From a virus: DNA of 64,000 nt. Both the position numbers and the translations under genes were made by a program. Numbering within the stretch: the stretch's first letter is position 1; each line of letters opens with the position of its first letter. Below are positions 10,484-53,897 of the stretch, piece after piece. The notes beneath the pieces are model-generated. The model saw nothing but the letters and a program-made list of their open reading frames with translations. It ran no database searches and had not been told where the DNA came from. The stretch spans positions 1-64,000 of the IMG/VR virus record IMGVR_UViG_3300009177_000034; one strand, written 5' to 3'.

Positions 10484-10633
10484 CTACGTCGGCTTGGCGG
10501 CCCGCGCAAGACGCGCGCGCTCGGCCCGATGAAAGACGCAGGCGCAGAGCGGGCCATGCGGCGGGGCCTCGCGCGCGGGCGGCGGCGGCGGGGCGACCCC
10601 GCGGCGGGGCGGCGGCGGGGGCGGCTTCTTCAT
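10484..10633 (-). CDS. 49-residue proline-rich peptide
   Basis: ATG 10633 overlaps the stop of the SleB-type hydrolase gene (ATGA). The product starts MKKPPPPPPRRG and ends with a short CACVFHRAERARL helix. Low-complexity composition and high GC make chance opening possible; coupling is the only positive evidence. Confidence 0.35.
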   Translation of the reverse strand: MKKPPPPPPRRGVAPPPPPAREAPPHGPLCACVFHRAERARLARAAKPT

Positions 10634-11082
10634 GCCACCAGGAACTCGTGCCGGCCCTCGACCAGCGTCACGCGGGCGGCGTCGTACCACGCGGGCAGGT
10701 CGCCCAGGCGCCGCCCCGCGCGCGTCGCCGCGGGGTTGAGATAGAACAGCGCCCCGCCCGTCGGGTCGGCCTCCAGGCGCCAGTAGGCGAGACTGGCCGC
10801 GCGCCACGCCGCCTCCCACGAGGCCGGCGCGATGGCCGCCAGGCGCGCCGCGCGCGGGCCGGCGTAGTCGGCGTTCCAGGCGCTAAACTGCCGGGGGGCG
10901 AGGCACACCTGGACGATGCCGTCGCCCTGCGCGTCCATCCGGTTGCGGATGACCCACGCCACCGCCACTTGGCCACGCGGCGACTCCGACTCGGCCTCTA
11001 GCAGGACAGTCGCCGCGTAGAGCAGCAGGCCAGGCCAGGTCCGCGGGTCGGCCAGCGGGGGCAGCGGGAGGAGGCCGGCCAT
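10630..11082 (-). CDS. SleB/CwlJ-type cell wall hydrolase (endolysin candidate)
   Basis: The 150-residue protein carries the Hydrolase_2 (SleB/CwlJ) pattern: an N-terminal LLEAESESPRGQVAVAWVIRNR with the likely catalytic glutamate, then a QFSAWN segment, helical AWRAASLAYWRL and a final ALFYLNP...GRHEFL block. SleB-type enzymes cleave peptidoglycan glycan strands. No signal peptide is evident, so export would need a holin or similar. Start ATG 11082 shares one base with the upstream stop (TGATG). Together with nearby membrane proteins it marks the lysis region. Confidence 0.85.
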   Translation of the reverse strand: MAGLLPLPPLADPRTWPGLLLYAATVLLEAESESPRGQVAVAWVIRNRMDAQGDGIVQVCLAPRQFSAWNADYAGPRAARLAAIAPASWEAAWRAASLAYWRLEADPTGGALFYLNPAATRAGRRLGDLPAWYDAARVTLVEGRHEFLVA

Positions 11083-12353
11083 CAGCGGGTCTCCAGGAGC
11101 AGCCCCGTGGGCACGCGGACCAAGAAGGCGTCGAGGCGGTCGCTCCCGTGGTTCGCCGTCCAGACGAACCACTCGCCCGTCGCATCCAGGTTGCCCTTCG
11201 GCAGCTTGCGGTAGTCGTCGCCCCCGCCCGGGGCGTCCAGGTCCACCAGGTTCGGCGCGATCACTACGGCCTCGCACTGGCCGTCGAGGCGGAACCCGAG
11301 AATCTCGTTGTTGCGGGGCTGGCGCTTCCGGTTGGCCCCCGAGCCCACCACGAACTGGCCGTCGGGGCCACCCGGCTGCGCGTTGGCGTGACTGATGTGG
11401 TTGAGGTCAGCGTTCCAGTTCGCCCCCTCGTAGACGACGCGCCCCTGCGGCGCCTGGGCCTCGTCGAGCATCCAGAGGCGCACGGCGTTCGGCTGGCCGT
11501 TCCAGTTGTCGGCGGCGACCATGTAGCCGAAGCCCAGGTCGGAGTGGCCGCCCGCGCCCTTGGGGTCCGTCAGCACGCGCTGGGTCCCGGCCCAGAGGTC
11601 CACGATGACGTTGTCCTCGCCCTCCAGGCCGTCGACGTTCTCCTTGATCACCAGGTAGCGCCCGCTCTTGTCAAGCTGACACTCGTCGTAGGGCCCCCGG
11701 GCGGGGAGGAACACGAAGGCCGTCTCGGGCGGGCGCCCCTCGTAGTAGACGAGGCTCCCGATGGCCGCGTTCGGCTCGACGGCCTCCTTCACCGTCGCGC
11801 TATGGACCCGCCCGTCGGCGCTGCTGTGCCACTGACGGAGGCGCTTCGACAGCGCGCGGTAGGGCGTGATGTCGACGGCGGCCACCACCGTCGTGACGGC
11901 CCGGTCCAGCACGTCGACGCGGTAGAGATGCTCGTCGTCCATGGCGAACAGGAGGTAGGGGTCCGTCGCGTGCCAATACCAGTTCTCCGCCGTCTGCCAT
12001 GACAGCGGATGCGACGCGGGGAACACCGGCCCGAGCGGCTCCACCTGGCCGCTGGCCTTGTCGACCTTGTAGAGCGATGGTCCCGCGCCGCCACGGTTGC
12101 GCTCGATGCCGAGCAGCACCAGGAGATGGCTCAGGCCCGCGTGCGCGTTGATCCGGCGCCAGTAGGAGTAACCCACGTCCCACAGCGCGTCCTGGCCGGC
12201 CATGTCCGACGGGTGGGTGAGGCGGATGCCGAGCGTGCCGTAGGGCGCGGGGAACTCGAAGGGGCCGCGGTCGGGGAGCGTCATCTGACACGGCGGGCGC
12301 ACGTCGCGCACACTGGGCGCCTCGCGGAATCCGCCGGGGTTCGGCATGGGCAC
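11082..12353 (-). CDS. Beta-propeller (WD40/TolB-like) protein
   Basis: The 423-residue protein is built of repeated beta-strand blocks such as LSHLLVLLGIERN, HLYRVDVLDRAVTTV, RYLVIKENVDG and GEFVWTANHGSD-like ends, the look of TolB or oligogalacturonate-lyase-type propellers. Histidine-rich spots (HSDLGFG, LNHISHANAQ) resemble metal or substrate sites of the lyase relatives. There is no clear signal peptide. It sits between the small paralogous proteins and the endolysin candidate, so it is expressed late. It may bind or cut a surface polysaccharide, or be a virion component; neither is shown. Confidence 0.7.
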   Translation of the reverse strand: MPMPNPGGFREAPSVRDVRPPCQMTLPDRGPFEFPAPYGTLGIRLTHPSDMAGQDALWDVGYSYWRRINAHAGLSHLLVLLGIERNRGGAGPSLYKVDKASGQVEPLGPVFPASHPLSWQTAENWYWHATDPYLLFAMDDEHLYRVDVLDRAVTTVVAAVDITPYRALSKRLRQWHSSADGRVHSATVKEAVEPNAAIGSLVYYEGRPPETAFVFLPARGPYDECQLDKSGRYLVIKENVDGLEGEDNVIVDLWAGTQRVLTDPKGAGGHSDLGFGYMVAADNWNGQPNAVRLWMLDEAQAPQGRVVYEGANWNADLNHISHANAQPGGPDGQFVVGSGANRKRQPRNNEILGFRLDGQCEAVVIAPNLVDLDAPGGGDDYRKLPKGNLDATGEWFVWTANHGSDRLDAFLVRVPTGLLLETR

Positions 12354-12960: not shown

Positions 12961-13104
12961 CTACAGGCGGCCAGTGACAAGCAGGATGACGAGGATCAGG
13001 ACGACGAGGCCGACGGCGCCGCCGCCGAGGACCGGGCCGCCGTAGTGCCAGCCCGGCACCGCGAAGAGCAGGACGACGATGAGCAGGACCCAGAGAATGT
13101 TCAT
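12961..13104 (-). CDS. DUF3309-like two-helix membrane protein
   Basis: The 47-residue peptide has two hydrophobic helices (ILWVLLIVVLLFAV and VGLVVLILVILLVT) around a WHYGGPVLGGG turn, matching the small DUF3309-type proteins found in bacteria. ATG 13104 is coupled by ATGA to the upstream membrane peptide. A holin-like role is possible given its place in the lysis region. Confidence 0.7.
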   Translation of the reverse strand: MNILWVLLIVVLLFAVPGWHYGGPVLGGGAVGLVVLILVILLVTGRL

Positions 13105-13262
13105 TTGCCCAGCACCCCGCTATACCCCAGCACAATCACCAGCGACCAGAAGGCCAGGCCCGCGGCGACCAGGCGGTTCCAGTAGGGCTGGATCGGCGGC
13201 ATCGTCGCGAGCACGAAGCAGACGAACGCGAACACCATCAGGATCATGGGCACGGGTGCCAT
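13101..13262 (-). CDS. Small two-helix membrane protein (holin candidate)
   Basis: The 53-residue ORF begins MAPVPMILMVFAFVCFVLA and has a second helix (AAGLAFWSLVIVLGY). The gene follows the secreted protease gene and is coupled to the DUF3309-like gene. Size, two helices and location fit a small holin, but no family signature is seen. Confidence 0.6.
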   Translation of the reverse strand: MAPVPMILMVFAFVCFVLATMPPIQPYWNRLVAAGLAFWSLVIVLGYSGVLGK

Positions 13263-13277: not shown

Positions 13278-14882
13278 TCAGCGTGGCACGGACGCGCGCA
13301 CGACGCCGTCCAGGGACAGCGTCACCGTGCTGGCCGTGACCTCGCACCGGAGCGTGAAGGTCGAGCCCGCGGGGCACGGCGTGGTGCCGAGCGGGCACTT
13401 CGTCGGGTTCGGCACCGGCGCCAGGGCGCCGAGCGGGGTGGCCACCACCAGCGTCGTGCCGGTCAGGCGGGAGATGCGGAGGCCGCTGGTCCCGCCCCAC
13501 AGGCGCGCGCAGCGGTAGCCGGGCACGTCGACCTCGTACCTGGCGCCGGCGAGGCCGCGGTGCACGAAGGGCGTCGTCACGTCCGCACTGCCCGGCGGCG
13601 GCGGGGGCGGCGGTGGGGGTGGCGGCGGCGGCGGGGGCGGGGCGACGGCGCCGCCGATGACAACCTCGGCCCCCGCGCTCGGCGACGCGCTCCGCACCTC
13701 GACGGTGATCTGGCTCACCGGGTCCGTCCAGGGCACGCCGACGGGCAGCGGGGAGCCCGGCGCGCCCACGCCCGGGGTCATGTCGAGGAGGAAGATGCCG
13801 TTGCTGCTGCCGCCCGTCTGCAGATGCACCAGCGTCCCGCCCGGGATGGTGTTCCCCGCGTTGACGCCGCGGTACTCCAGGTAGAGGGCGTCCCCGGTGC
13901 CGGTGCGCCGCAGTTCCAGGGCGCTCGCGTTCGTCTCGTAGGGCAGCAGGCGATAGGTCCCCGCCGTCACGACGCGCGGCTGCACCCACCCGGCGATCTT
14001 CTTCTGGGCCGCGTTCGGGTGGAGCGCGGCGCCGCCCATCACGTCGGCGGTGTCGCCGTACTCGCTCGTCGCGCAGCCCGAGGCCTTGAGCGGGACCGTG
14101 CCGCATTGCATCGAGTGCGAGTGCCACCAGCCGAGGTTGTGCCCGAGTTCGTGGAGCGACAGCATGGCGTAGGCCGTCGAGCCGTTGATCCACGCGCTCG
14201 ACGGGTTGCCGCCGACGGTGCCCAGGCCAGCCCAGGGGCACGCGGCGCTCGACGGCTGCGCGTAGAGCTTGTGCATGTAGCGCGACAGGTCCACGCCGGC
14301 CGCGCGCGCCGCCGCGTCGGCCTTGCTGGCGTTGCCCCAGTAGTCGCAGGCCCCCGACGTGGCCGCGATGGCGAACGGCCCGACCGCCGTGACGGCCATG
14401 TCGAGGGCGCCGTAGGAGACCTCGCGATAGAACCGCGTGATCTCCGCCGCAGTTCCGGCGACGGCGGCGGGGGAGCGGGCGAGGTTCGGCTTGTCGGCGT
14501 AGTCGAGCAGGATCAGCACGACGGCGTGCGTGCCCCCGACGAGGCCGAGCGTCTGGGCGGCGCCGCCGGCGCGCTGGACGAGCGGGACGACGGTCCACTT
14601 CGGGCCCGGCTCGCGCGTGATGCGGACGCGGTCCCCGGACTGAAAGCGCGTGTCCGCCGCCGTGGTGCGGCGGAACACGAAGCAGCCGCCCGTGTCGGGG
14701 CAGACGCTGTAGACGTAGTGGCCGCCGCCGTGGCCGTCGTCAACGTGGAGCACGCGCACGACGCCGTCCAGGGTGACGCCGACCGGGGCCGCGGCCACCC
14801 GGGCGGGCGCCGCGGGGGCCACCGCCGGGGTGGCGAGGGCGCCCAGGAGCAGCAGCAGGCCCGCGAGCGCCTCGGCCCTCAT
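13278..14882 (-). CDS. Secreted metzincin-like zinc metalloprotease
   Basis: The 534-residue protein starts at ATG 14882 with a Sec signal peptide (MRAEALAGLLLLLGALATPA). The catalytic domain has the metzincin zinc site HELGHNLGWWH (H244, E245, H248, H254) and a Met-turn YGDTADVMGG (M282), closest to the gametolysin (M11) and reprolysin pattern. A run of about sixteen prolines near residue 415 links it to a C-terminal domain of beta strands with paired cysteines. The product should be exported and cut proteins outside the cytoplasm. It lies in the lysis region beside a DUF3309-like peptide and a holin candidate. A virion-borne or host-surface target is equally possible. Confidence 0.88.
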   Translation of the reverse strand: MRAEALAGLLLLLGALATPAVAPAAPARVAAAPVGVTLDGVVRVLHVDDGHGGGHYVYSVCPDTGGCFVFRRTTAADTRFQSGDRVRITREPGPKWTVVPLVQRAGGAAQTLGLVGGTHAVVLILLDYADKPNLARSPAAVAGTAAEITRFYREVSYGALDMAVTAVGPFAIAATSGACDYWGNASKADAAARAAGVDLSRYMHKLYAQPSSAACPWAGLGTVGGNPSSAWINGSTAYAMLSLHELGHNLGWWHSHSMQCGTVPLKASGCATSEYGDTADVMGGAALHPNAAQKKIAGWVQPRVVTAGTYRLLPYETNASALELRRTGTGDALYLEYRGVNAGNTIPGGTLVHLQTGGSSNGIFLLDMTPGVGAPGSPLPVGVPWTDPVSQITVEVRSASPSAGAEVVIGGAVAPPPPPPPPPPPPPPPPGSADVTTPFVHRGLAGARYEVDVPGYRCARLWGGTSGLRISRLTGTTLVVATPLGALAPVPNPTKCPLGTTPCPAGSTFTLRCEVTASTVTLSLDGVVRASVPR

Positions 14883-15866: not shown

Positions 15867-16232
15867 TCACTTTTTAGAATCCACCACCGAGCGGAGGGCG
15901 ACATACCGCGACTCCAGGGTGGCAAGCTGCCCGTCCACGGTCGCGCGGGCGGCCGCGTCCGGGCCGCTGCGGACGGCGCGCCACTGGGTCGTGAGGGCGG
16001 GGAGCGCCGTCTTGGCGCCGGCGACGTAGGCGTTCCAGGCCGTCACTTCGGCGGGCGTGACCTTGTTCGCCGCGCTCAGGGCCACATAGTCGGCCTGGGT
16101 CGTGACGATGCCGGTGGCGAGCGTCAGCAGGCGGTCGTCGGCCGTCGGGGCCGGCGGCGTCGACAGCGACGCGCAGCCGACGACGATGAAGGCCAGGGCC
16201 AGCAGCACGGGGAGCAGGAGGAGTCGACGCAT
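15867..16232 (-). CDS. Lipoprotein (outer spanin candidate)
   Basis: The 121-residue protein starts at ATG 16232 behind AAGGAG. It has a lipoprotein signal peptide (MRRLLLLPVLLALAFIVVGC) with a lipobox ending in Cys20, then a helical soluble part (AEVTAWNAYVAGAKTALP). Export and lipidation are well supported. A lipoprotein near a cell wall hydrolase and membrane proteins could be an outer-membrane spanin subunit, which would imply a Gram-negative host, but no sequence match to spanins is claimed. Confidence 0.8.
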   Translation of the reverse strand: MRRLLLLPVLLALAFIVVGCASLSTPPAPTADDRLLTLATGIVTTQADYVALSAANKVTPAEVTAWNAYVAGAKTALPALTTQWRAVRSGPDAAARATVDGQLATLESRYVALRSVVDSKK

Positions 16233-17706: not shown

Positions 17707-18258
17707 TCACCCGGCCTCCGCCGCGAAGGTGGCGACGCGGTGCTGCACCGTCGAGGCCCCCGGCGTCAGGACGAAGAAGCCGACGGCCCCCGTGCACACC
17801 TGGCCGACCGCCGCGGCGAGTTGCACCTGGTTCAGCGTCAGCGACACGGCCGCGCCGAGGGCCTCGGCCTCCAGGGCGAACGGCACGTGCGGCGTGGGGT
17901 TGGCCACCCGCGCCGCCCGGAGGACCTGCTCCCGCCCGTTGACGACCTCGGCGATGCGGACGAGCGGGCTCCCGCCGGCCTGGCGGTAGACGGTCAGGAA
18001 GTTCAAGGGGTCCTGATAGCGGAGCAGCAGGCCGAAGCGGGGCCCCTGGGCCACGTCGCCGCACGTGAAGCGCGCCCGGACCGTCTGGTCCGCCGTCGCC
18101 ACGTCCAGGCGGAGGGCGACGTGGAGGCCCGGGCGCGGCCAGGTCTCGGCGGCCCCCTGGTGGATCGCGTACCCCCCGAGGGGCACCGTCCAGTCGGTCG
18201 CGAGGGGGCCGTCGGGGCGGTCGAAGAAGTCGGCGACGAGGCGGGGCGCTGGCGGCAT
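17707..18258 (-). CDS. Jelly-roll (LamG/DUF1080-like) virion protein
   Basis: ATG 18258 follows GGAGAGGG. The 183-residue protein has the pattern of a concanavalin-like lectin domain: FFDRPDGPLATDWTV, WPRPGLHVALRL, RFGLLLRYQDPLNFLTVYR and VGFFVLTPGASTVQH. Such domains bind carbohydrate and occur as accessory fibre or tail proteins. As the last gene of the tail block it may decorate the fibre and contact the host surface. Confidence 0.7.
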   Translation of the reverse strand: MPPAPRLVADFFDRPDGPLATDWTVPLGGYAIHQGAAETWPRPGLHVALRLDVATADQTVRARFTCGDVAQGPRFGLLLRYQDPLNFLTVYRQAGGSPLVRIAEVVNGREQVLRAARVANPTPHVPFALEAEALGAAVSLTLNQVQLAAAVGQVCTGAVGFFVLTPGASTVQHRVATFAAEAG

Positions 18259-31287: not shown

Positions 31288-32580
31288 TCAACGTGGCCAC
31301 CGCTGGCCTCCCATGTGAGCGTAGCGGTCTTTCAGGCAGATGAGATGGGCCTCGATGTAGGGGCACGCGTTGTCGCGGTGCCACTGGGACGGGTAGATCT
31401 CCTGCACGCGACTCTCCGCGAAGCGCGCGGTCAGCGCGGGCACATACCTGGCGAACGCTGGGTCTGTCACGTACAGGAAGCTGTTCTTCACGTAGTACGC
31501 GCAATGGGTCGGGTCCTGGAACGCCCCCTGCCCGAGCGCGGACGGCGTCATTGACAGGAACCATCCGCCGGGCGCGAGCACGCGCCACGCCTCGTTGAAA
31601 ACGTGGATCTTGTCAGGAATGTGCTCCAGCGCGTCGTGGGCCCGGAGCACCCCCACGCTGCTGTCCGCCAGCGGCCAGCGGCCGCGCAGGTCGGCGACGA
31701 TGCCACCCGGCGTCGGGGTCACATCGAGCGGCACGAAGCCCGGCGCCGGGTCCAGGCCCCCGCACAGGTCGACGCAGGCCAGGCCCGCGTCGCGCGCGCC
31801 CTTGACGGCCAGCGGCCAGACGTGGCGGTTGTAGACGGCCTCCGTCCACTGCCGGATCTCGGCGTTCCGCGTCGCCACCGCGTTGCCGCCGTGCACCCGG
31901 TACAGGTAGAGCGGGCGCGGGATGCGCTCGATGCGCTGGCCCGCCAGGTAGCCGCGGCACAGGAGGTCGTGGTCGTCGGCGAAGGGCAGGGCGCGGTCGT
32001 GGCCGCCGACGGCGGCGTAGGCGGCGCGCGTCCAGGCGCGGACGTGGTTCGGCGCCCAGTCGACGTAGCGGAGGTTCTGGGGCGTCACCGGCGGCGCCGC
32101 CATCGCGACGAGCGCATGCCCCGCGTACGTCATGGGATAGGACGCCCACCCGAAGTCCGCGCTGTAGGTGTTCGGGGCCCAGGTGCCGTGGTGGAACTCG
32201 GCGAAGTCGCTGTAGACCACGTCCGCCCCCGCGCCGAGGGCGGCCACCACGTCCGCGAGGGCGTCGGGCGTCAGCAGGTCGTCGGCGTCGAGTTCCAGGA
32301 AGATCGCGCCCGCCGCCTGCTGACAGCAGGCCTGCTTGAGGGCGCCGACCCCCTGGAGGTCGGGCGGCGCCGGCCAGGTCCGCACGCGCGCGTCGCGCGT
32401 GATCTCGGCGGGCAGCACGCCGCCGTGGTTGGTCAGGACCAGCCACTCCCAGTGCGCGTAGGTCTGGCGGCGGAGCGACTGCCAGGCCTCGGCCACGAAG
32501 GCGTTCCCCGCGGCGTGGAGCGGGGTGATCACCGACACGAGCGGGCCGGCGGGCCGCGTCCCGTTGCGCCGCGCGCCCAT
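31288..32580 (-). CDS. Glycosyltransferase family 2 fused to SAM methyltransferase
   Basis: The 430-residue protein starts at ATG 32580 (TGATG). Residues 14-230 are a GT-A glycosyltransferase: VSVITPLHAAG, a nucleotide-sugar site ELDADDLLTPDAL (D98-D100) and a later ADDHDLLCRGYLAG segment. Residues 265-430 are a class I methyltransferase (DLCGGLDPAPGFVPLDV, HDALEHI at 315-321, EAWRVLAPGGWFLS). The fused enzyme should add and then methylate a sugar. It lies inside the tail-fibre operon, so the acceptor may be a tail fibre or host surface glycan. Confidence 0.88.
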   Translation of the reverse strand: MGARRNGTRPAGPLVSVITPLHAAGNAFVAEAWQSLRRQTYAHWEWLVLTNHGGVLPAEITRDARVRTWPAPPDLQGVGALKQACCQQAAGAIFLELDADDLLTPDALADVVAALGAGADVVYSDFAEFHHGTWAPNTYSADFGWASYPMTYAGHALVAMAAPPVTPQNLRYVDWAPNHVRAWTRAAYAAVGGHDRALPFADDHDLLCRGYLAGQRIERIPRPLYLYRVHGGNAVATRNAEIRQWTEAVYNRHVWPLAVKGARDAGLACVDLCGGLDPAPGFVPLDVTPTPGGIVADLRGRWPLADSSVGVLRAHDALEHIPDKIHVFNEAWRVLAPGGWFLSMTPSALGQGAFQDPTHCAYYVKNSFLYVTDPAFARYVPALTARFAESRVQEIYPSQWHRDNACPYIEAHLICLKDRYAHMGGQRWPR

Positions 32581-42624: not shown

Positions 42625-43596
42625 CTAGGCGATGACGTTGGACCAGAAGTAGGCCAGTTCCGGGGCCACGACCTTGTTGCTGACCGCCGTCTCCGCCTCG
42701 ATGCGCTCCGCGCCGAGCCCGAGGAGCGGGATCGGGATGCGGTAGGTGGCCACGGTGGTGCCGAGGCCGCCGCTGACGCCCTTCCAGACGAACTGGTAGC
42801 CGGCGGACGGGGCCAGGAGCGAGGGCGACTGGGCCGCGTAGGCCAGCAGGGCATGCTTGCCGAAGGCGAAGTCGTAGGTCTCGACGGCGGCGCCCTCGTT
42901 GTTGGTGGCCTTGATGGCCTTCGCCACCAGGACGCGCTCGACCCCGAACAGCGCGGCCAGCACCGAGTCCGTCACCATCGTCGGCGCCGCGGGGCTGCTG
43001 CTGTACTTGATCCGGTCGATGATGTCGGGGTGGTCCAGGAGGGCGTTGTAGACGCCGAAGCCCAGGACCAGGGTGTTCGGCTCGTAGCCCGTCTGGCCCA
43101 GGATCAGGGCCTTCGCCGCGCGCACGTTGCCGATGGGGTTCGACGTGGCGTAGCTGTCCCAGTTGACGGCGGTCGTGTCGTCGGTGCCCCAGACGCCCGT
43201 CTTGAAGAACTCCTCGGCCCACTGCAATTCCATGCGGAGCAGGAGCTTGCCCGCCACGAACTCCGCGGCGTCGCGGTCCATGTCCAGGGGCTCGTCCGCG
43301 TTGGCGCGCTCCTGGGGGCCCACGTCCTTGTGGAACGCCATGACCTCGGCCATGTAGCTCCCGTACGACAGCCGGTAGCCGCCGCCCGCGCTCTCCGTCA
43401 GCGAGGCGCGCGGCTTCGCATCGTCCCGCAACCAGTCGTTCCGGTTGTAGATGCGGTACATGTCGCTTTTCTTGTCGACAAGCACGCGCGGGAAGACCTT
43501 CGCGGCGATGAACTGTTCCGCGTTCTGGGTGTACTTGACGCTGATCTGCGTCAGGACGCGGTCGATGTGAAGCTGCTGAACTGTCGGCTGCGGCAT
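42625..43596 (-). CDS. Major capsid protein
   Basis: The 323-residue protein follows a strong AAGGAGG and begins MPQPTVQQLHIDRVLTQISV. It has the composition and length of an HK97-fold capsid: an E-loop-like segment (SDMYRIYNRNDWL), a spine helix (MDRDAAEFVAGKLLLRMEL) and the P-domain-like sequence (PNTLVLGFGVYNALLDHP). The order protease, scaffold, decoration, capsid, connector is canonical. No N-terminal prodomain cleavage site is obvious. Confidence 0.88.
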   Translation of the reverse strand: MPQPTVQQLHIDRVLTQISVKYTQNAEQFIAAKVFPRVLVDKKSDMYRIYNRNDWLRDDAKPRASLTESAGGGYRLSYGSYMAEVMAFHKDVGPQERANADEPLDMDRDAAEFVAGKLLLRMELQWAEEFFKTGVWGTDDTTAVNWDSYATSNPIGNVRAAKALILGQTGYEPNTLVLGFGVYNALLDHPDIIDRIKYSSSPAAPTMVTDSVLAALFGVERVLVAKAIKATNNEGAAVETYDFAFGKHALLAYAAQSPSLLAPSAGYQFVWKGVSGGLGTTVATYRIPIPLLGLGAERIEAETAVSNKVVAPELAYFWSNVIA

Positions 43597-46706: not shown

Positions 46707-48503
46707 TCACTCGGCTCTGGCCCGCGGCTCCAGCACCAGCGAGCACCGGCAGTTCTGGGTGATAATGCCACCGGCCATGTAGAACCCATCCCCCGTCTGG
46801 AGGTTGTAGACCGGCCCATGGAACGCATACGCCTCGACCATGCGAACGCGATCCGGCTCTACGTCGGTGGCCTCTCGGAGAATGCGCTCGCCCAGCGCCT
46901 CGGCGTCTCGCGCAGCGTCATCGCCCGACGGCTGGCCGCCCACGGGATACCGCGGCGCTCCCAGAGCGAGGCGGAGCGGCTCAAGTGGCAAGGCATGACC
47001 CCCGCGCAACGCCAGCGCCAGGTCCGCGCAGCGCACGCCGCGGCCACAGGGCGCACGGTCCCGCTGGCGACCAAACTGCGACTCGCGGCGACTCGGGAGG
47101 CTCGGGCACAGTTCGGAAGCGCGGAGGAGGCGCGCCTCGCGGGGATGCTCCAGCAGCGAGGCGTCGTCGTGACCCCGCAGCGAGCCATCGGCCCATATAA
47201 CTGCGACCTGGGAGCCGGCCCCGTCGCCGTGGAAGTCTTCGGCGGCAACTGGCACACGCGTGGGCGGCGCTACGCGCGCCAAGCGGAGCGCACGCGCCAC
47301 ATCCTCAATGCGGGCTGGCATCTCCTCGTGGTGGTCGTGACACGAGCGGCCCCACTGACGGAGGCGACTGCTGATTACGTCGCTGCCTACGTGGAGGCGG
47401 CCCGCCTGGACCCAGCCGCCCGGCGTGAGTATCGGATGGTTCGGGGTGCAGGCCAGACGCTTACCGCTGGCGGTGCGGAGGATGACCATATCGCCCTGGT
47501 AGATGCGGGCACTCGTCGCCGCAATCCGCGAACCGGGCGCTACGAGCGCGTCACCCGGTAGGCAGTTCGGATGCGCCGGCGGGCCCTCAGGGAACGCCTG
47601 GCCGATGGGGCGCGTCTCGCCGTCCAGTTCCCGGCACCGCTCGCAGGCGCTCGCGTCCTGGATGCGCCAGACCTGGACGTGGTCGGGCGGCAGCAGGTCG
47701 AGGGCGTCCAGGACCGCCCACCCCTCCACCAGGCCGGCCTGCGCCGCCGCCCACGTCTCCGTCGCGGCAATGGTCAGCGTCCGGGCGGCCCGGAGTTCCT
47801 CGCCGTAGACGGCCAGGGCCGCGCGAATCTGCGGGCGCGACAGGCGACCGTCCGCCAGGAGGCGCGTGCGCTCGGCCTGCAGCGCCGCCGCCTGGGCCTC
47901 CGTCAGGCCGACCATCGTCCGGAGTTCGGCCGCCGTCTCCTCGACGGACAGGCCGGCGCGGATGCTGCCCGCGATCACGGCGCGGATGGCCGCGCGCGTG
48001 CCCGCCGTCACCTCGGCCACCGCGGCGGCCGCGCGCCGCTCGGCCCAGTCCGCGGCGGCGGCGCGGACGATGGCCAGGTCGGCCGCCTCGGTCCCGTCGG
48101 GCCCGCCGTCGTGCCGGGCGCCGGCGCGGAGGGCCGTCAGGAAGGCCGCGCCCAGGGCCACGACCAGGCCGGCCAGCAGCGCCCGCTCATGCTCCTGCCA
48201 CGGCAGGTCGTCCACCTGGGCGTCCGTCAGGTCGGCCTCCGGGGAGTCGAGCCAGGCGCGCACGCGCTGCTCGGAGAACTGCTCGCGCAGTTGCGTCACG
48301 GCGGCCTGGTAGGTGGCGGCCACGTCGCGCTCCGCCCGCTGCGCGGCCCGCTCCAGGGCGGCCACGAGGGCGGGGTTGTCGGCCTTCGCCAGGTGCGCGT
48401 CCGCGAGGTCGAGGAAGCGGTCCAGCGCCGCCAGCAGCGGCGCCAGGCTCACGCGAGGAGTTGCCACGGGCATCATCCGACCCGGGCTTCTTTCTTCACT
48501 CAC
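46707..48503 (-). CDS. MuF-type head morphogenesis protein, split by an intein
   Basis: The 598-residue precursor has a helical MuF domain (residues 20-313) ending PPAHPN and, after an intein, the extein tail CRCSLVLEPRARAE. HPNCRC is the hallmark end of SPP1 gp7/MuF proteins, so residues 314-584 are an insertion that splices out. MuF proteins join the portal and are packed with it inside the procapsid. Start GTG 48503 overlaps the portal stop; ATG 48476 is possible. The mature protein would be 327 residues. Confidence 0.92.
   Translation of the reverse strand: MSEERSPGRMMPVATPRVSLAPLLAALDRFLDLADAHLAKADNPALVAALERAAQRAERDVAATYQAAVTQLREQFSEQRVRAWLDSPEADLTDAQVDDLPWQEHERALLAGLVVALGAAFLTALRAGARHDGGPDGTEAADLAIVRAAAADWAERRAAAAVAEVTAGTRAAIRAVIAGSIRAGLSVEETAAELRTMVGLTEAQAAALQAERTRLLADGRLSRPQIRAALAVYGEELRAARTLTIAATETWAAAQAGLVEGWAVLDALDLLPPDHVQVWRIQDASACERCRELDGETRPIGQAFPEGPPAHPNCLPGDALVAPGSRIAATSARIYQGDMVILRTASGKRLACTPNHPILTPGGWVQAGRLHVGSDVISSRLRQWGRSCHDHHEEMPARIEDVARALRLARVAPPTRVPVAAEDFHGDGAGSQVAVIWADGSLRGHDDASLLEHPREARLLRASELCPSLPSRRESQFGRQRDRAPCGRGVRCADLALALRGGHALPLEPLRLALGAPRYPVGGQPSGDDAARDAEALGERILREATDVEPDRVRMVEAYAFHGPVYNLQTGDGFYMAGGIITQNCRCSLVLEPRARAE
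46752..47564 (-). mobile_element. Class 1 intein in MuF gene
   Basis: Codons for residues 314-584 hold the intein. It begins CLPGDALVAPG (Cys1), has a block B motif (CTPNHPILT with the TxxH pattern), a middle segment (RIEDVARAL, AEDFHGDG) and a block F/G end (VYNLQTGDGFYMAGG, IITQN) followed by Cys+1. The penultimate residue is Gln rather than the usual His. There is no in-frame endonuclease domain of recognised type; the nuclease gene is on the opposite strand. Total length is 271 residues. Confidence 0.9.
46818..47561 (+). CDS. Vsr/DUF559-like homing endonuclease, antisense to the intein
   Basis: The 247-residue ORF on the plus strand lies wholly inside the intein DNA, and its stop codon abuts the first intein codon. 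It has an N-terminal HTH (YVGGLSENALAQRLGVSRSV) and a Vsr-like nuclease core (QQRGVVVTPQRAIGPYNCDL, VAVEVFGGNWHTRGR, HILNAGWHLLVVVVT) with likely catalytic D and H, ending RRNPRTGRYERVTR. Phage homing endonucleases with this core are known to me; the antisense, near-complete overlap with an intein is unusual. Both strands are open for 744 bases. Confidence 0.88.
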   Translation: MERIRLDHANAIRLYVGGLSENALAQRLGVSRSVIARRLAAHGIPRRSQSEAERLKWQGMTPAQRQRQVRAAHAAATGRTVPLATKLRLAATREARAQFGSAEEARLAGMLQQRGVVVTPQRAIGPYNCDLGAGPVAVEVFGGNWHTRGRRYARQAERTRHILNAGWHLLVVVVTRAAPLTEATADYVAAYVEAARLDPAARREYRMVRGAGQTLTAGGAEDDHIALVDAGTRRRNPRTGRYERVTR

Positions 48504-50511
48504 TTACTGGCATCGAACTCGTGGGCCTGGGCGACGATGGTACCGCCAGCGCCACATAAATCGGCCTGTCGCCGTCGGCCTTGCCAACCTTAACCTCCTT
48601 CCAACGCACGTTCCCAATCGGTGACTCGGACGGAACGAACGCCGCATCCGCTACCCAGGCCCGCTTGATCCACTCTGGCGGGATGTCGCCCTTGATCTTC
48701 AGCGCCGTCCGCTTCCCGGTCTGTGCTGGGTCCTCTACGATTCGGTGTTTCTCCGACGCGGGGACATGCACTTCCAAGACAACCGCTGTCGCGTTCTCGG
48801 CCGAGTGCTGCGCCGCGTACGTAGCGAACGCGACAGCGGTCTGATGATCGTGCGCGAGGAATACGTGCCCCGTCTCCGTACCAGGCCACGCCTGCCCCGC
48901 CTTATCACCCTTGAGCCCGGTCGAGAGAATCGACGCAAGGTTGGCGCTACTCGTCCCATGCGTACCGATGATCGCGCCGGCTCCGCCCCCGCTCCCGGAG
49001 GAAAACTCCCCGGTGCTGGCGTCGTGGTTCGGGTTGCCCTCCTTGCGGACGACGACCGACGCGGCGACGGCCTGGCGCAGTTCGCGGACGGCCCGCACGA
49101 ACTCCCGCCGCTCCGCGTGGTAGGCCCAGGCCGGCGCGGGCCCCGCGGCCTTGGCGATCTCGCCCTTGTCCCGCGTCGGCAGCTTCGCCGCGGCCATCAG
49201 CGCCGCCTCTAGCTCGGGCTCGGGGAATAATTCCATCCCGGCCCCGGACAGTTGGCCGATGAAGGCGCCCAGTTCCGACAGGTTCGGGGTGTCGATGGCG
49301 CCGTGGGCCAGCTTCGGCATCCGCTCGGAGCCCCACCCGTTGAGCGCCATCAGGCGCGGGATGGCGTGGCGGTTGAACACCTCGGCGATGGTGTCCAGGA
49401 ACGACGCCAGGGCCAGGCCGAACAGGCGGGCCTTGTTCTCGTGCAGCGAGAACGACCCCGTGCCCTCGTGGCCGACGAGGATGAAGTCGGCCAGGACGGT
49501 CATGGCGATGCGCTGCTCGTAGCGGCCGATGATCTCGGTCGTGTCGTACTGCCGGCGCGAGCCCGTCGACAGCAGGGAGAACTCCAGCCAGTGCGGCAGG
49601 ACCGCCCCCTCCTGCTCGTCGCGGCGCACCGAGCGGACGAACGTCTCGATCTTGTCCTTGAGCGCGTTGGCGTCGGGCGTCCCGGTCCAGATGTCGGGGC
49701 CGAGGGCCTTGCCGGTCGTCGGGTCCGTCTTGATTTGGGCCACGGGGTAGCCGGCCAGGTCGCGCTCCAGGCCGATGGCCTCGTACTCCTGGACGCGCTT
49801 CGCCAGGAACCACGAGCGGTAGGCGCCGCGCAGGATGCTGCGGCCCTCCGGGTTGCCCTTCCACGACGTGGGGCGGAACAGCAGCGACTTCTCGACGGGC
49901 AGCGTGACGATCTGGAACTTCGGCGGGGCCAGTTGCACCATCGCCTGGACGCCGCCCTCCTCGTCGAACTCCCAGTGCAGCAGCGAGTCCTGGGCGCGCG
50001 TGCTGATCTTGCGCCAGCCGATGCGGCCGTCGCCGTAGCGGCTGCGGCGCGTCGGGTCCGGGTCCTCGGCCAGGCGGCGCTTGTAGACGATCTCCGCCCA
50101 GTGCCAGCCGTAGGGCAGCATCGACAGCACCTCGGCGATGAGGTCCGCCCACGTGATATTCATATCGTCCAGGCACGAGTTCACGAACTGCGCGCGCAAC
50201 TGGTCGCCCACGTCGGCGCTGGCCGCGTCGACCCGCCACGTCACCTGGCGCACGAGGTACTCGATGGCGAACAGCATCGCGTTGACCACGGCGTCGTTCT
50301 CCCGCATCTCGCGGTAGACGACCGCGGCCTGGCGCCCCTGGAGGACGCGCAGGAACTCCTCGACGACGTAGCCCGAGTAGCGCTTGAGGCCGGTGGAGCC
50401 TAGCTCGATGAACGGGTTGGTCGGGGCGTAGCCCGAGACGACGCCCGGCGTCGGGTCGGCGGGCACGACGACGCCCGGGGGCAGCGGCCCGCCGTTCGTG
50501 CTAGACGGCAT
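48496..50511 (-). CDS. Portal protein with C-terminal ADP-ribosyltransferase-like domain
   Basis: The 671-residue protein has a Mu/SPP1-type (DUF935-like) portal domain over about 1-480 (YREMRENDAVVNAMLFAIEY, YGWHWAEIVYKRR, GIRLERDLAGYP-like core, FILVGHEGTGSFSL). A glycine/serine linker (NPNHDASTGEFSSGSGGG) leads to a compact domain near residues 510-640: GTHGTSSANLASIL, VFLAHDHQTAVAFATYA, VVLEVHVPA, IKGDIPPEWIKRA. These fit an ADP-ribosyltransferase-like (ART-PolyVal/KptA-like) fold, inferred by eye. The C-terminal region is visibly AT-richer than the portal core. The 12-fold portal would carry twelve copies. Confidence 0.9.
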   Translation of the reverse strand: MPSSTNGGPLPPGVVVPADPTPGVVSGYAPTNPFIELGSTGLKRYSGYVVEEFLRVLQGRQAAVVYREMRENDAVVNAMLFAIEYLVRQVTWRVDAASADVGDQLRAQFVNSCLDDMNITWADLIAEVLSMLPYGWHWAEIVYKRRLAEDPDPTRRSRYGDGRIGWRKISTRAQDSLLHWEFDEEGGVQAMVQLAPPKFQIVTLPVEKSLLFRPTSWKGNPEGRSILRGAYRSWFLAKRVQEYEAIGLERDLAGYPVAQIKTDPTTGKALGPDIWTGTPDANALKDKIETFVRSVRRDEQEGAVLPHWLEFSLLSTGSRRQYDTTEIIGRYEQRIAMTVLADFILVGHEGTGSFSLHENKARLFGLALASFLDTIAEVFNRHAIPRLMALNGWGSERMPKLAHGAIDTPNLSELGAFIGQLSGAGMELFPEPELEAALMAAAKLPTRDKGEIAKAAGPAPAWAYHAERREFVRAVRELRQAVAASVVVRKEGNPNHDASTGEFSSGSGGGAGAIIGTHGTSSANLASILSTGLKGDKAGQAWPGTETGHVFLAHDHQTAVAFATYAAQHSAENATAVVLEVHVPASEKHRIVEDPAQTGKRTALKIKGDIPPEWIKRAWVADAAFVPSESPIGNVRWKEVKVGKADGDRPIYVALAVPSSPRPTSSMPVSE
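48498..48984 (-). other. ART-like domain fused to portal
   Basis: Sub-gene segment coding residues 510 to the end. The HGTS start with a following helix, a beta strand ending in VFLAHD and a helical AVAFATYAAQ resemble the NAD-binding half of ADP-ribosyltransferases. The usual glutamate near the C-terminus cannot be assigned with certainty. GC content is lower than in flanking genes. Confidence 0.55.
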
Positions 50512-50699: not shown

Positions 50700-53291
50700 C
50701 TAGATGCTGCCCCGCCAGTTGTCGCGCAGGAGGGCGACCGGGAAGCCGGTCGTGTCGGGGCCGCGGAGCAGTTCGGCGGCGAAGGCCTGGACGACCGCGT
50801 CGCCGTCGTCGGTGGAGCGCTCCTCGCCGGTCTCTCGCTTGATGCGCTTGATCACGTCGTCCTTGCTCTCCACCTGAATCTTGCCGCCCGACATGACCCG
50901 CCAGCGGGGCGCGGTCAGGTCCCCGGTTAGCCTATCATCCGGGGGCAGCGCGACCGTAGGACCAAACGCGGGGTCCAGGCGCTCGCGCAGGCCCCACCAG
51001 GCGGCGGAGCGGAGGTTGGCGAAGCCCAACTCTCCAGAGCGGTCCAGAGCCTCGCACTTCGCCGACGCCGTGAAGGCGACGACGGAGGCCGAGCGGGCCA
51101 GCGCGTAGTCCTCGGCGATCTGCTCGCGGACGCGGTGGAACACGCCCGCGCCGATGCCCGTGCTGTCGACGATGCCCCGGCCGCCGCGGGCGCGGAGGAC
51201 GCCCAGGAGCGCCCCCGCCGTCACCATCGTGTCGCGGCGGGGCAGGCGGCGGAGGGCGGCCAGCACGTCGCCCGCGCGCAGGGCCAGGACGCTCCGGTCG
51301 GCCTGCTCGCCCTCGCCCCCCACGTCGCACCCCACCGCCGTCAGGGCGCCCGTGTCGGGGTCGCCGCCGCCCTCGCGCCAGGCGTGCCACCGCTCGTTGG
51401 CCGCCTCGATCCAGGCCAGCGGGACGACGCCGTCCGTCTCGCTGGCCGCGAACTCGCCCAGGACGCGGTTGGCGTAGACGGGGGAGGTCGCGCCCCACTG
51501 CTCGGCGCGCATCCGCGCCCACTCCGCCGACATGCGGCCCGAGGCGATGGTCTCGTCCCGCGTGATGTGGCGCGTCCACCAGTCGTCGTAGCCGGCGCGG
51601 CGGGCGTGGATGTCGTAGAAGCGCCCGTGGGGTTCGCCCGGGGTCGAGATGATCAGCGCCAGGGCCTCGCGCCCGGTGTCCTGGCCGGCGCCGCTGAACG
51701 CGCCCTCGGCGGCGTCGAAGGTCTCGCTGCGGATGGTCTTCGCCTCGTCGAAGATGTAGAGCATGTGGTCGGCGTGGGCCCCCTCGATCAGGGCCGGCTC
51801 GTCGCTGGCCACGGCGAAGGCGGCGCCGCCCGACAGCTTGAGCGACATGCCGGTCAGTTCCAGGTGGCGGTCGAACGGCGCGCGGCCGATGACCTCCCAG
51901 CGGAGGCGGCGGGCCCACTTGTGGACCTCGGGCCAGAGGTAGCGCTCCAACTGTCTCCAGACGGAGGCCGTCGAGACGCACTTCCAGTCCAGGCCCTCGC
52001 GCGTCAGGGCGAACCACAGGATGGCCTGCGCGGCCATCGCCGTGTTGTGCGTGACGATGCCGTCGTTGCAGAGGTAGAGGCCGTCGGGCGCGTCGACGGT
52101 GATGCACCGCTGCGCGGCCGCGCCCGCGGGGGCGATGGCGGCGATCCATCGTTGGAGGTATCGCTTCTGCGAGACGAACCGCATCCGCTCCCGCTTCCGC
52201 TCGACCAGGACCCAGTCGCCCGCCGGCATCGTGAGCCGAACGTTGTAGACGGGCCCGTAGGCGTTGCGCGTCTCGCTCCGTCGGGCTTTCCCGCCGAGGG
52301 ACCGCGCGAGCCATGCGACCCCGTCCGCGAGCGCCGGACTGACCGAGTTGTAGACGAGTTGGCCCTCCCGCGTGACCCAGCCGTCCGTATCCAGGAGCCC
52401 GCGCAGCATCGCTTCGCGGTGCGGGCGGGCGTTTTCAAGGTAGACCCGGGGGATGAACTTGGTGTGCGAGCCGCACTCGTACAGCCCGAGGGTCCGCAGC
52501 CCGGGCAGCAACCCGTGGACCCAGACGCCGCCCGCCGCCACCGGCCGGAGGACATACCCCGCCGCCTCGATTTGCCGGTGGATCTCCTTGTCACGCGCGT
52601 GCATGTAGCCCGTGCGTCGCCCCCCGTCGCCCAGCCAGGTGCCGAGGGTATAGGGGTCAACGGGCACCCACCTGGGCGGATAGTCCCACCCTGTGACGGG
52701 GATATGAAAACGACGCGCGCGACCGATCCCGTTGGAGCGGGTGACTCCCGAGGCGCTGAGGGCCTCGGTCGTGAACGTCTGCCACGGGGGAGGCCGCCCC
52801 GACCAGTCGGAGGACGTGCCACGCTGGACGGCCCACTCGTGCTCGGCTGAGCAGAGGGTCGAGGCGCCGTCGTCGAACGTCACGCGATAGACCGGGCGCA
52901 CGCCCCACGGCCACACCGCCATGACGCGCACCGGCTGGCCTGATGACCCGAACACGCGGTCCCCGACCTGGAGGTCGCCGAAGCGCCGCCGTCCGTCGGG
53001 CGTGTCAATGTCAAGGTCGTCTGGTTGGGCCTTCCCCGGCCCGTGCGGCCCGCGGACGGCGGCCCGGCGCGCCGTCACCAGGTGGCGGAGGATGTCGCGC
53101 TGGTAGGCCGTCTGGCCCTCGCCGCGGAGCCAGGTGAACGCCTCGTCGGTGAACGCCACCGGGTCCCGGCGCCAGCGGGCCATCTGCTGGGCGTGCGACT
53201 CGCCCTCGGCACGGAGGGCGGCGCGCCGCTGGCGCTCGGCGCGGAGTTCCTCGGCCGTCGGGGGACCGTACCAGGCGGGCGGGCGGCTCAT
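50700..53291 (-). CDS. Large terminase subunit, split by an intein
   Basis: The 863-residue precursor begins MSRPPAWYGPPTAEELRAER at ATG 53291. Walker A is split as GPHGPGK and T by a 329-residue intein (residues 88-416). After splicing, the ATPase has Walker B (MLYIFDEA, about 512-516 in the precursor) and a downstream nuclease domain (AVGCDVGGEG, DSTGIGAG, DDGDAVVQAF). The mature enzyme of about 534 residues packages DNA into the head. Without splicing the Walker A motif is broken, so splicing is required for packaging. Confidence 0.95.
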   Translation of the reverse strand: MSRPPAWYGPPTAEELRAERQRRAALRAEGESHAQQMARWRRDPVAFTDEAFTWLRGEGQTAYQRDILRHLVTARRAAVRGPHGPGKAQPDDLDIDTPDGRRRFGDLQVGDRVFGSSGQPVRVMAVWPWGVRPVYRVTFDDGASTLCSAEHEWAVQRGTSSDWSGRPPPWQTFTTEALSASGVTRSNGIGRARRFHIPVTGWDYPPRWVPVDPYTLGTWLGDGGRRTGYMHARDKEIHRQIEAAGYVLRPVAAGGVWVHGLLPGLRTLGLYECGSHTKFIPRVYLENARPHREAMLRGLLDTDGWVTREGQLVYNSVSPALADGVAWLARSLGGKARRSETRNAYGPVYNVRLTMPAGDWVLVERKRERMRFVSQKRYLQRWIAAIAPAGAAAQRCITVDAPDGLYLCNDGIVTHNTAMAAQAILWFALTREGLDWKCVSTASVWRQLERYLWPEVHKWARRLRWEVIGRAPFDRHLELTGMSLKLSGGAAFAVASDEPALIEGAHADHMLYIFDEAKTIRSETFDAAEGAFSGAGQDTGREALALIISTPGEPHGRFYDIHARRAGYDDWWTRHITRDETIASGRMSAEWARMRAEQWGATSPVYANRVLGEFAASETDGVVPLAWIEAANERWHAWREGGGDPDTGALTAVGCDVGGEGEQADRSVLALRAGDVLAALRRLPRRDTMVTAGALLGVLRARGGRGIVDSTGIGAGVFHRVREQIAEDYALARSASVVAFTASAKCEALDRSGELGFANLRSAAWWGLRERLDPAFGPTVALPPDDRLTGDLTAPRWRVMSGGKIQVESKDDVIKRIKRETGEERSTDDGDAVVQAFAAELLRGPDTTGFPVALLRDNWRGSI
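52044..53030 (-). mobile_element. Class 3 LAGLIDADG intein in TerL
   Basis: Residues 88-416 of the precursor start with Ala (AQPDDLDIDTP) instead of Cys/Ser. Block B is CSAEHEW (Trp153), block F YLCNDG (Cys408), block G IVTHN (Thr414, Asn416) followed by Thr+1. This W-C-T triplet and a nonnucleophilic first residue define class 3 splicing through Cys408. The middle has two LAGLIDADG motifs (TLGTWLGDG and LRGLLDTDG, near residues 215-223 and 296-304), so it is a full homing intein. The insertion in Walker A is a favoured site. Confidence 0.9.
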
Positions 53292-53497
53292 GCGCGGGCC
53301 TCTGGCCTCACCAAGCGCCACCCGCGGCCATGACAGCCGGGGCAGACGCGCATCGCCGCCGTCGGCAGGCCCAGGTGGCAGGGCATCGAGTCCATCCGCT
53401 CCCGCCCCAGGCGCCCGCAGCCGACGCACCAGGCCTCGCGGCGGAGGGGCGGGGGGTCATGGGAGCCCGGTGAGGAGGACGCGGCGGACGAGGGCAT
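53288..53497 (-). CDS. Small zinc-finger protein
   Basis: The 69-residue frame starts at ATG 53497, within the previous gene, and ends in the terminase start (ATGA). It has CVGCGRLGRERM and a CPGCHGRGWRL pair, a four-cysteine zinc site that recalls DnaJ-like fingers. It may bind nucleic acid or a terminase partner. Confidence 0.55.
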   Translation of the reverse strand: MPSSAASSSPGSHDPPPLRREAWCVGCGRLGRERMDSMPCHLGLPTAAMRVCPGCHGRGWRLVRPEARA

Positions 53498-53897
53498 CCG
53501 GGGCGTCGCGCGGGGCCCAGAGGCGGTAGCCGCCCACGTACACCATCTGCCCGCGTATCGGCACCAACAGCGCCGGCGGCATCAGGCCGGCGAAGCGGTT
53601 GGAGGCGGGGAGCGGGTTGGCGAACTCTGACGCCGAAGCGTAAAACCCGCCGCCCAGGCCCACGTTCCGCTCCGCGGGGTCATAGCTCAGGCCCGACGGC
53701 TCGGGCGGCCAGGCGAAGGGCTCGTCCGTTGGGGGCGGGGGCGGCGGCGGCGGGGGCGGCACCACCACGGGCGGCCCCACCGGCTCCACGCGCGGCACCG
53801 GGCCAGTCCCCTCGATGAGGATGCTGTCCGCGTCCACGTCGCGCACGAAGCGCACGAAGCCGTCAATCTGCATCCGCCAGGTGACGGGGTCGCTCAT
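53457..53897 (-). CDS. Polyproline structural-type protein
   Basis: The 146-residue protein begins MSDPVTWRMQIDGFVRFVRD and contains a run of ten prolines, followed by LSYDPAERNVGLGGGFYASA and VPIRGQMVYVGGYRLW. Two folded parts seem linked by the proline rod. No family is recognised. It lies between TerS and TerL. Confidence 0.6.
   Translation of the reverse strand: MSDPVTWRMQIDGFVRFVRDVDADSILIEGTGPVPRVEPVGPPVVVPPPPPPPPPPTDEPFAWPPEPSGLSYDPAERNVGLGGGFYASASEFANPLPASNRFAGLMPPALLVPIRGQMVYVGGYRLWAPRDAPDALVRRVLLTGLP

What the first reader, a model, noticed from the sequence alone, without database searches (positions are those of the whole stretch)
13278..14882. Secreted metzincin-like protease in the phage lysis region
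A 534-residue ORF has a Sec signal, a HELGHNLGWWH zinc site and a DVMGG Met-turn, then a long polyproline bridge and a C-terminal cysteine-bearing domain. Secreted zinc proteases of this type are unusual for phages. Its location with membrane and lipoprotein genes suggests action on the envelope, on a surface competitor or on an S-layer at or before lysis.
Basis: partly seen in the sequence, partly recalled or inferred. Interest (0 to 1): 0.78.

Follow-up and report, generated by a model that had tools for sequence, protein, structure and literature searches.

The report
Phage-encoded secreted zinc protease (M11)
A soil-type bacterial virus carries a gene for an exported zinc protease of the gametolysin (M11) family, joined to a domain so far seen only in viral copies, which it probably uses outside the cytoplasm late in infection; such proteases are very rare in known phages and what this one cuts is unknown.

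Summary
The ORF is real. It lies on the minus strand (ATG 14882, stop 13278, 534 aa) in a one-directional phage operon and overlaps the upstream gene by 4 bases. It is an M11 (gametolysin-type) metzincin: Pfam PF05548 E=2e-17, 63.7 bits against a cut-off of 21. The zinc ligands H244/H248/H254, E245 and Met-turn M282 are invariant in 20 homologues. All four viral copies have a hydrophobic N-terminus, a plain Sec-type signal in three of them. No relative was found in 50,697 phage records. A scan of 2.9 million IMG/VR contigs found three: a related phage (G043, gene in the same place), an unrelated phage (G044) and G045. The window, G043 and G044 proteins form one clade (100/98) and share a ~90-residue C-terminal domain that no sampled bacterial homologue has. 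This domain resembles tail-gene g29 and, weakly, ConA/LamG lectin folds. G045 looks like a separate acquisition. The lysis link is loose: an endolysin lies 2.2 kb downstream here but on the other side in G043. Best reading, inferred: a late-expressed, Sec-exported protease acting on envelope or matrix proteins at or after lysis. The closest precedent is the phage-derived metzincin Mtz of Listeria. New variant of a known kind.

The parts
13278..14882 (-). Whole gene, 534 aa, exported M11-family metzincin with C-terminal beta domain
   Evidence: (PF05548 E=1.9e-17); homologues
14814..14882 (-). Putative Sec signal peptide, residues 1-23 (cleavage site approximate)
   Evidence: Sequence; viral homologues also start with hydrophobic leaders, e.g. 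MKTFTLLLLLLLLFPGLAHA and MIRLLFILLLLPSLTWA; by eye, no SignalP run
14583..14777 (-). N-terminal small beta domain, residues 36-100 (possible pro-domain); shared with bacterial homologues, shortened in G044
   Evidence: Alignment A3; five strands in model
13983..14549 (-). Catalytic metzincin domain, residues about 112-300
   Evidence: PF05548 match at 147-308; Foldseek to InhA2, CpaA, adamalysins, fragilysin; PDB profile hits to snake-venom metalloproteinases, MMPs, astacins
14121..14153 (-). Zinc site HELGHNLGWWH, residues 244-254
   Evidence: H244, E245, H248, H254 invariant in 18 and in 20 sequences
14031..14063 (-). EYGD motif and Met-turn DVMGG, residues 274-284
   Evidence: E274 Y275 G276 D277 D280 M282 G283 invariant
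13647..13982 (-). Beta-rich domain after the catalytic domain, residues 301-412 (LLDMTPG motif), shared with bacterial M11-like proteins
13593..13640 (-). Polyproline linker, 16 Pro, residues 415-430
   Evidence: Sequence; shorter run in G043, reduced in G044
13281..13592 (-). C-terminal domain, residues 431-534, with conserved Cys in YxCxRL and FTLRC; found only in the viral copies sampled; resembles gene 17707-18258
   Evidence: (HMM E=5e-9 to the tail-region gene); weak ConA-like fold matches
17707..18258 (-). Tail-region gene g29 (183 aa) carrying a domain related to the protease's C-terminal domain
   Evidence: no Pfam, no PDB, no phage tblastn match
12961..13104 (-). Small membrane protein, DUF3309-like; its G043 counterpart also follows the protease
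   Evidence: 22.0 bits, just under cut-off 22.3; G043 copy 77 bits; pair alignment z=10
13101..13253 (-). 50-aa membrane protein directly downstream of the protease
   Evidence: gene call; hydrophobic by sequence
10630..11082 (-). Endolysin (Hydrolase_2 / SleB type)
15867..16232 (-). Putative lipoprotein (lipobox VVGC)
   Evidence: phrog_658 E=2e-4, function unknown; Rz-like spanin family only E=0.05

Best explanation
The gene encodes an exported M11-family zinc endoprotease of a tailed phage. Shown by sequence: a Sec-type leader, a small N-terminal beta domain, an intact metzincin catalytic domain, a beta domain shared with bacterial M11 exoproteases, a polyproline hinge, and a C-terminal beta domain found only in the viral copies sampled. 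Inferred: it is made with the late genes, exported by the host Sec system into the periplasm, and acts there and in the surroundings once the cell opens. It would cut envelope or matrix (possibly glycosylated) proteins, with the C-terminal domain holding the enzyme to its target. The gain would be cleaner cell opening and better release or spread of progeny. The family identity is nearly certain (about 0.95) and export likely (about 0.85). The release role is a commitment under uncertainty, and the figure below is for that role.
For: PF05548 three times over cut-off; catalytic residues invariant in 20 homologues; M11 match in all four viral copies. Same position after the tail genes and before a DUF3309-type membrane gene in related phage G043, and again among small exported and lipoprotein genes in unrelated phage G044. 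A 63-67 aa exported neighbour is shared by G043 and G044 (58% identity; z=22.6). The C-terminal domain is conserved across W, G043 and G044, but aligned bacterial homologues end before it. Precedent: the secreted metzincin Mtz of phage origin in Listeria, found beside holin-lysin genes, raises phage lysis and virion release about 5-fold together with its lipoprotein partner (PMC8235301).
Against: No expression, timing, substrate or activity data. The endolysin is not immediately adjacent in the window or in G043, and its side changes. No Tim-like lipoprotein lies immediately downstream in the window. A relative phage carries an integrase, so expression from a lysogen is possible. The active-site loop is modelled with low confidence (pLDDT 51-57 for residues 261-290).
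Confidence: 0.42

Rival explanations
1. Lysogenic-conversion or metabolic cargo: an exoprotease secreted by the infected or lysogenic cell to feed or protect it, taken from a bacterial M11 exoprotease and kept for host benefit.
For: Bacterial homologues are secreted multidomain exoproteases of Burkholderiales, Marinobacterium, Ferrimonas and others. Related phage G043 has tyrosine-integrase segments at both contig ends. G045 carries a bacterial-type copy, grouping with bacterial M11.
Against: No integrase found in the window's record (the record may be incomplete). The gene lies inside the late, one-directional operon, not at an end next to an attachment site. A viral-only C-terminal domain suggests long viral use.
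Confidence: 0.23
2. Receptor-destroying or superinfection-blocking enzyme: the protease clips outer-membrane or surface proteins that serve as phage receptors, keeping progeny off debris or keeping rival phages out.
For: Exported, with a C-terminal domain resembling one in a tail-region gene of the same phage, which could mean it recognises the same surface target. Compatible with position among late genes.
Against: No receptor known; the tail-domain resemblance may be simple domain reuse.
Confidence: 0.15
3. Virion-associated tail protease used at entry, with the C-terminal domain docking on the tail.
For: Shared domain with tail-region gene g29; location next to tail genes.
Against: Sec-type leaders in the viral copies point to export from the infected cell, not cytoplasmic assembly. 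The MCP-related phage records sampled lack the gene.
Confidence: 0.08
4. Passenger or assembly artefact: a bacterial gene wrongly joined to, or only recently caught by, the phage, without a function for it.
For: Rare: 1 of 43 related records.
Against: Same place in G043, ATGA overlap with the upstream gene, phage-like GC3, viral clade with 100/98 support, catalytic residues kept at about 43% identity.
Confidence: 0.04

Closest known systems
Bacterial M11-like exoproteases (Burkholderiales, Marinobacterium, Ferrimonas, Zobellella; PF05548)
   Same: Signal peptide, N-terminal beta domain, M11 catalytic domain with identical zinc site and EYGD..DxMG motif, following beta domain with LLDMTPG
   Different: They are longer, mostly 600-900 aa among the Pseudomonadota, with other C-terminal repeat domains; none of those examined has the viral C-terminal domain; chromosomal; 26-37% identity
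Eukaryotic gametolysin (MEROPS M11, Chlamydomonas/Volvox)
   Same: Same Pfam family over cut-off; metzincin zinc site and Met-turn
   Different: Cell-wall lysin of algae; only part of the profile (37-190 of 303) is matched
Mtz-Tim pair of Listeria (phage-derived metzincin plus TIMP-like lipoprotein, PMC8235301)
   Same: Secreted metzincin of phage origin found near holin-lysin genes; proposed to aid lysis
   Different: Mtz comes with a lipoprotein immediately downstream; here the genes immediately downstream are small membrane proteins. Gram-positive host. Sequence relation not tested
Immune inhibitor A (M6) and CpaA (M72) type secreted metalloproteases
   Same: Best PDB fold neighbours of the model; sub-threshold M6 domain match
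   Different: M6 model 26.8 bits against cut-off 110.8; M11 fits far better
OgpA of Akkermansia (annotated M11; PMC7518263)
   Same: Metzincin-type zinc site annotated as M11
   Different: O-glycopeptidase proposed by its authors as founder of a new family; not among the top 50 fold matches here

Membership tests
Peptidase M11 (PF05548, gametolysin) | Profile match over the curated cut-off | tested here: met
   63.7 bits vs 21, E=1.9e-17; viral relatives 37.8, 45.5 and 50.5 bits
Peptidase M11 (PF05548, gametolysin) | Match over the full length of the family model | tested here: inconclusive
   Profile positions 37-190 of 303 only
Peptidase M11 (PF05548, gametolysin) | Zinc-dependent proteolytic activity | not testable with these tools
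   Needs purified protein
Metzincin clan MA(M) | HExxHxxGxxH zinc site, conserved in homologues | tested here: met
   Residues 244-254; H244, E245, H248, H254 invariant in 20 sequences
Metzincin clan MA(M) | Met-turn C-terminal to the zinc site | tested here: met
   M282 invariant
Metzincin clan MA(M) | Metzincin fold | tested here: met
   Foldseek probability 1.00 to InhA2, CpaA, adamalysins, but TM-scores are modest and mean pLDDT is 74
M6 immune inhibitor A | NCBIfam M6 domain cut-off | tested here: not met
   26.8 bits vs 110.8
M12B reprolysin / M12A astacin | Pfam cut-offs | tested here: not met
   11.7-13 bits vs 22-27
Mtz-Tim type phage lysis-enhancing pair | Secreted metzincin near phage lysis genes | tested here: met
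   Endolysin 10630-11082 in the same operon
Mtz-Tim type phage lysis-enhancing pair | Lipoprotein gene immediately downstream | tested here: not met
   Downstream are 50-aa and 47-aa membrane proteins; the lipoprotein gene (15867-16232) is 1 kb upstream
Mtz-Tim type phage lysis-enhancing pair | TIMP-like fold of the partner | not tested
   No structure job spent on it
ConA/LamG-like lectin domain (C-terminal domain) | Jelly-roll fold match | tested here: inconclusive
   Many phage ConA-like hits, probability up to 0.98, but E at least 0.046; domain model pLDDT 64; no PDB sequence match

The most novel reading that the evidence does not exclude
Tailed phages of soil bacteria carry their own lineage of exported M11 metzincins, fused to a viral-only domain that they share with a tail protein. 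The protease is aimed at the same surface the phage recognises and acts as a receptor-destroying or exit enzyme, a phage counterpart of the receptor-destroying enzymes of animal viruses.
Probability: 0.12. Interest if true: 0.8.

Novelty: new variant of a known kind. Interest (0 to 1): 0.48.

Why it matters
Phage lysis is usually described with holins, endolysins and spanins, all acting on membrane or peptidoglycan. An exported metzincin kept by at least two unrelated phage types, with active site intact and a viral-only extra domain, suggests that some phages also attack proteins outside the cytoplasm. The only experimental precedent found in the papers searched is the Listeria Mtz-Tim pair. 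The gene is a compact, testable candidate.

Tried and rejected
Plus-strand reading of the coordinates: no family sense. Tblastn with the window protein, its catalytic domain, the G044 protein and the bacterial L090 protein in 50,697 phage records: nothing. Single-protein and first-alignment scans of viral contigs: nothing, probably because the patterns were too specific; alignment A2 then found three and A4 the same three, so the count is a lower bound. Neighbour g17 as a synteny anchor: four contigs share it but no other window gene. Host search by major capsid protein in 398 genomes of the phylum of the best bacterial homologue (Pseudomonadota): none at E<1e-30; host remains unknown. Cysteine switch in the N-terminal domain (CPDTGGC): not conserved in G043, so dropped. 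Rz-like spanin identity for the lipoprotein 15867-16232: E=0.05 only. Homology of the G043 and G044 lipoproteins: suggestive only (z=3.7, 9 of 2000 shuffles). Papers on gametolysin or M11 in phages: no report of this kind among the papers listed.

Full report
Observation. The ORF described exists, on the minus strand: ATG at 14882, stop at 13278, 534 aa. It belongs to a one-directional late operon of a tailed phage. Nearly all genes called in the window are on the minus strand. A portal (48496-50511), a major head protein (42625-43596, phrog_1005) and an endolysin (10630-11082, Hydrolase_2) are recognised. The window is part of a 69,373-base IMG/VR record. Long open frames are cheap at this GC content, so the case rests on GC3, the operon overlap and homology.

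Family. Pfam places residues 147-308 in Peptidase_M11 at 63.7 bits, cut-off 21. M12 and M10 models stay below cut-off, as does the M6 model. Two alignments, of 18 and 20 sequences, keep H244, E245, H248, H254, the EYGD motif and M282 invariant. A profile of the family reaches snake-venom metalloproteinases, MMPs and astacins in the PDB. The AlphaFold model (mean pLDDT 74) matches immune inhibitor A2, CpaA and adamalysins with Foldseek probability 1.00. The TM-scores are modest and the loop around residues 261-290 is poorly modelled, so the fold evidence supports the sequence evidence but does not stand alone.

Distribution. No relative was found in 50,697 annotated phage records with four different queries and no PHROG matches. 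Of 43 records searched, the window's own and 42 with a related capsid protein, only the window's carries an M11 domain. Alignment-based scans of IMG/VR found three further carriers, all over the M11 cut-off. Because these scans use short patterns, three is a lower bound. Five of 300 genomes drawn from the order of the Rhodocyclaceae homologue have M11 proteins of this kind.

The three carriers. G043 (68 kb) is a true relative of the window phage: major head protein 67% and portal 69% identical, head and tail genes in the same order. Its M11 gene lies after the tail genes and is followed, one gene later, by a DUF3309 membrane gene, as here. Integrase pieces at both contig ends suggest a temperate phage. 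G044 (49 kb) has different head genes but is a phage (terminase, portal and head protease). It carries the M11 gene next to an exported 67-aa protein that is 58% identical to a neighbour of the G043 gene. G045 has a phrog_1005 major head protein and a phrog_113 portal and an M11 protein without the C-terminal domain. In the tree the window, G043 and G044 proteins form one clade (100/98), while G045 falls on the side of the bacterial sequences: most likely two acquisitions by phages.

The C-terminal domain. Residues 431-534 align with the ends of the G043 and G044 proteins, with conserved Cys in YxCxRL and FTLRC. Bacterial homologues stop matching before it and continue with other repeat domains. 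A profile of the domain finds one more protein among 280 from the four phages: g29, a tail-region gene of the window (E=5e-9). Its own predicted fold is of low confidence and resembles ConA/LamG-type domains of phage proteins only weakly. Calling it a lectin-like domain is a lead, not a result.

How it most likely works. Hydrophobic leaders on all four viral copies, Sec-type in at least three, make export the simplest reading. Position among late genes points to production late in infection. The enzyme would act in the periplasm and, once the cell opens, on surface or matrix proteins. The Listeria phage-derived metzincin Mtz, which with its lipoprotein partner raises phage lysis and virion release (PMC8235301), shows that such an effect is possible. 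The window lacks the lipoprotein partner immediately downstream, so it is not filed as a Mtz-Tim pair. Rival readings (host-benefit exoprotease, receptor-destroying enzyme, virion protease, passenger gene) are listed with their tests. Nothing here decides between the first three experimentally.

Verdict. A well-supported, rare and apparently functional phage-borne M11 metzincin with a viral-only domain. The lysis-region wording is loose, and substrate and role remain open.

Noticed in passing
50700-53291: Large gene next to the portal carries LAGLIDADG/Hom_end homing-endonuclease domains, probably an intein in a packaging gene.
   Followed up: no
46707-48452: Mu F-like head gene with a weak intein-splicing match at residues 318-564, both below cut-off.
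   Followed up: no
48496-50511: Portal protein with a C-terminal extension giving a weak PARP-catalytic match at residues 518-582 (E=0.028) and PHROG families of unknown function.
   Followed up: no
11082-12311: 409-aa gene without family; 57-59% identical relatives in four viral contigs (L086-L089) that share no other window gene, so it moves between phages.
   Followed up: partly
31288-32580: Glycosyltransferase family 2 plus methyltransferase in one gene within the tail region.
   Followed up: no
55996-57312 and 57309-58502: Two neighbouring, similar genes that by eye look like ParB-like N-terminus fused to a DNA methyltransferase.
   Followed up: no
53457-53897: Proline-rich protein whose C-terminal part is 49% identical to a gene near the protease in G044 and weakly like the exported protein beside the protease in G043: possibly a second accessory gene travelling with the protease.
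   Followed up: partly
59591-60472: Second exported-looking protein (293 aa, hydrophobic leader), no family.
   Followed up: no
L128:15851-16102: Small G044 gene near its protease with a CCxxHDxxY..GG motif, phospholipase-A2-like by eye; Pfam only DUF1353 at E=0.019.
   Followed up: no
L124/L127 (G043 contig ends): Integrase segments at both ends of the G043 contig suggest a complete, circularly permuted temperate genome.
   Followed up: partly
fold search, BFVD: Best viral fold match of the protease is an uncharacterized 603-aa protein of Gaeavirus, a giant virus (E=5.5e-13): M11-like enzymes may also occur in giant viruses.
   Followed up: no
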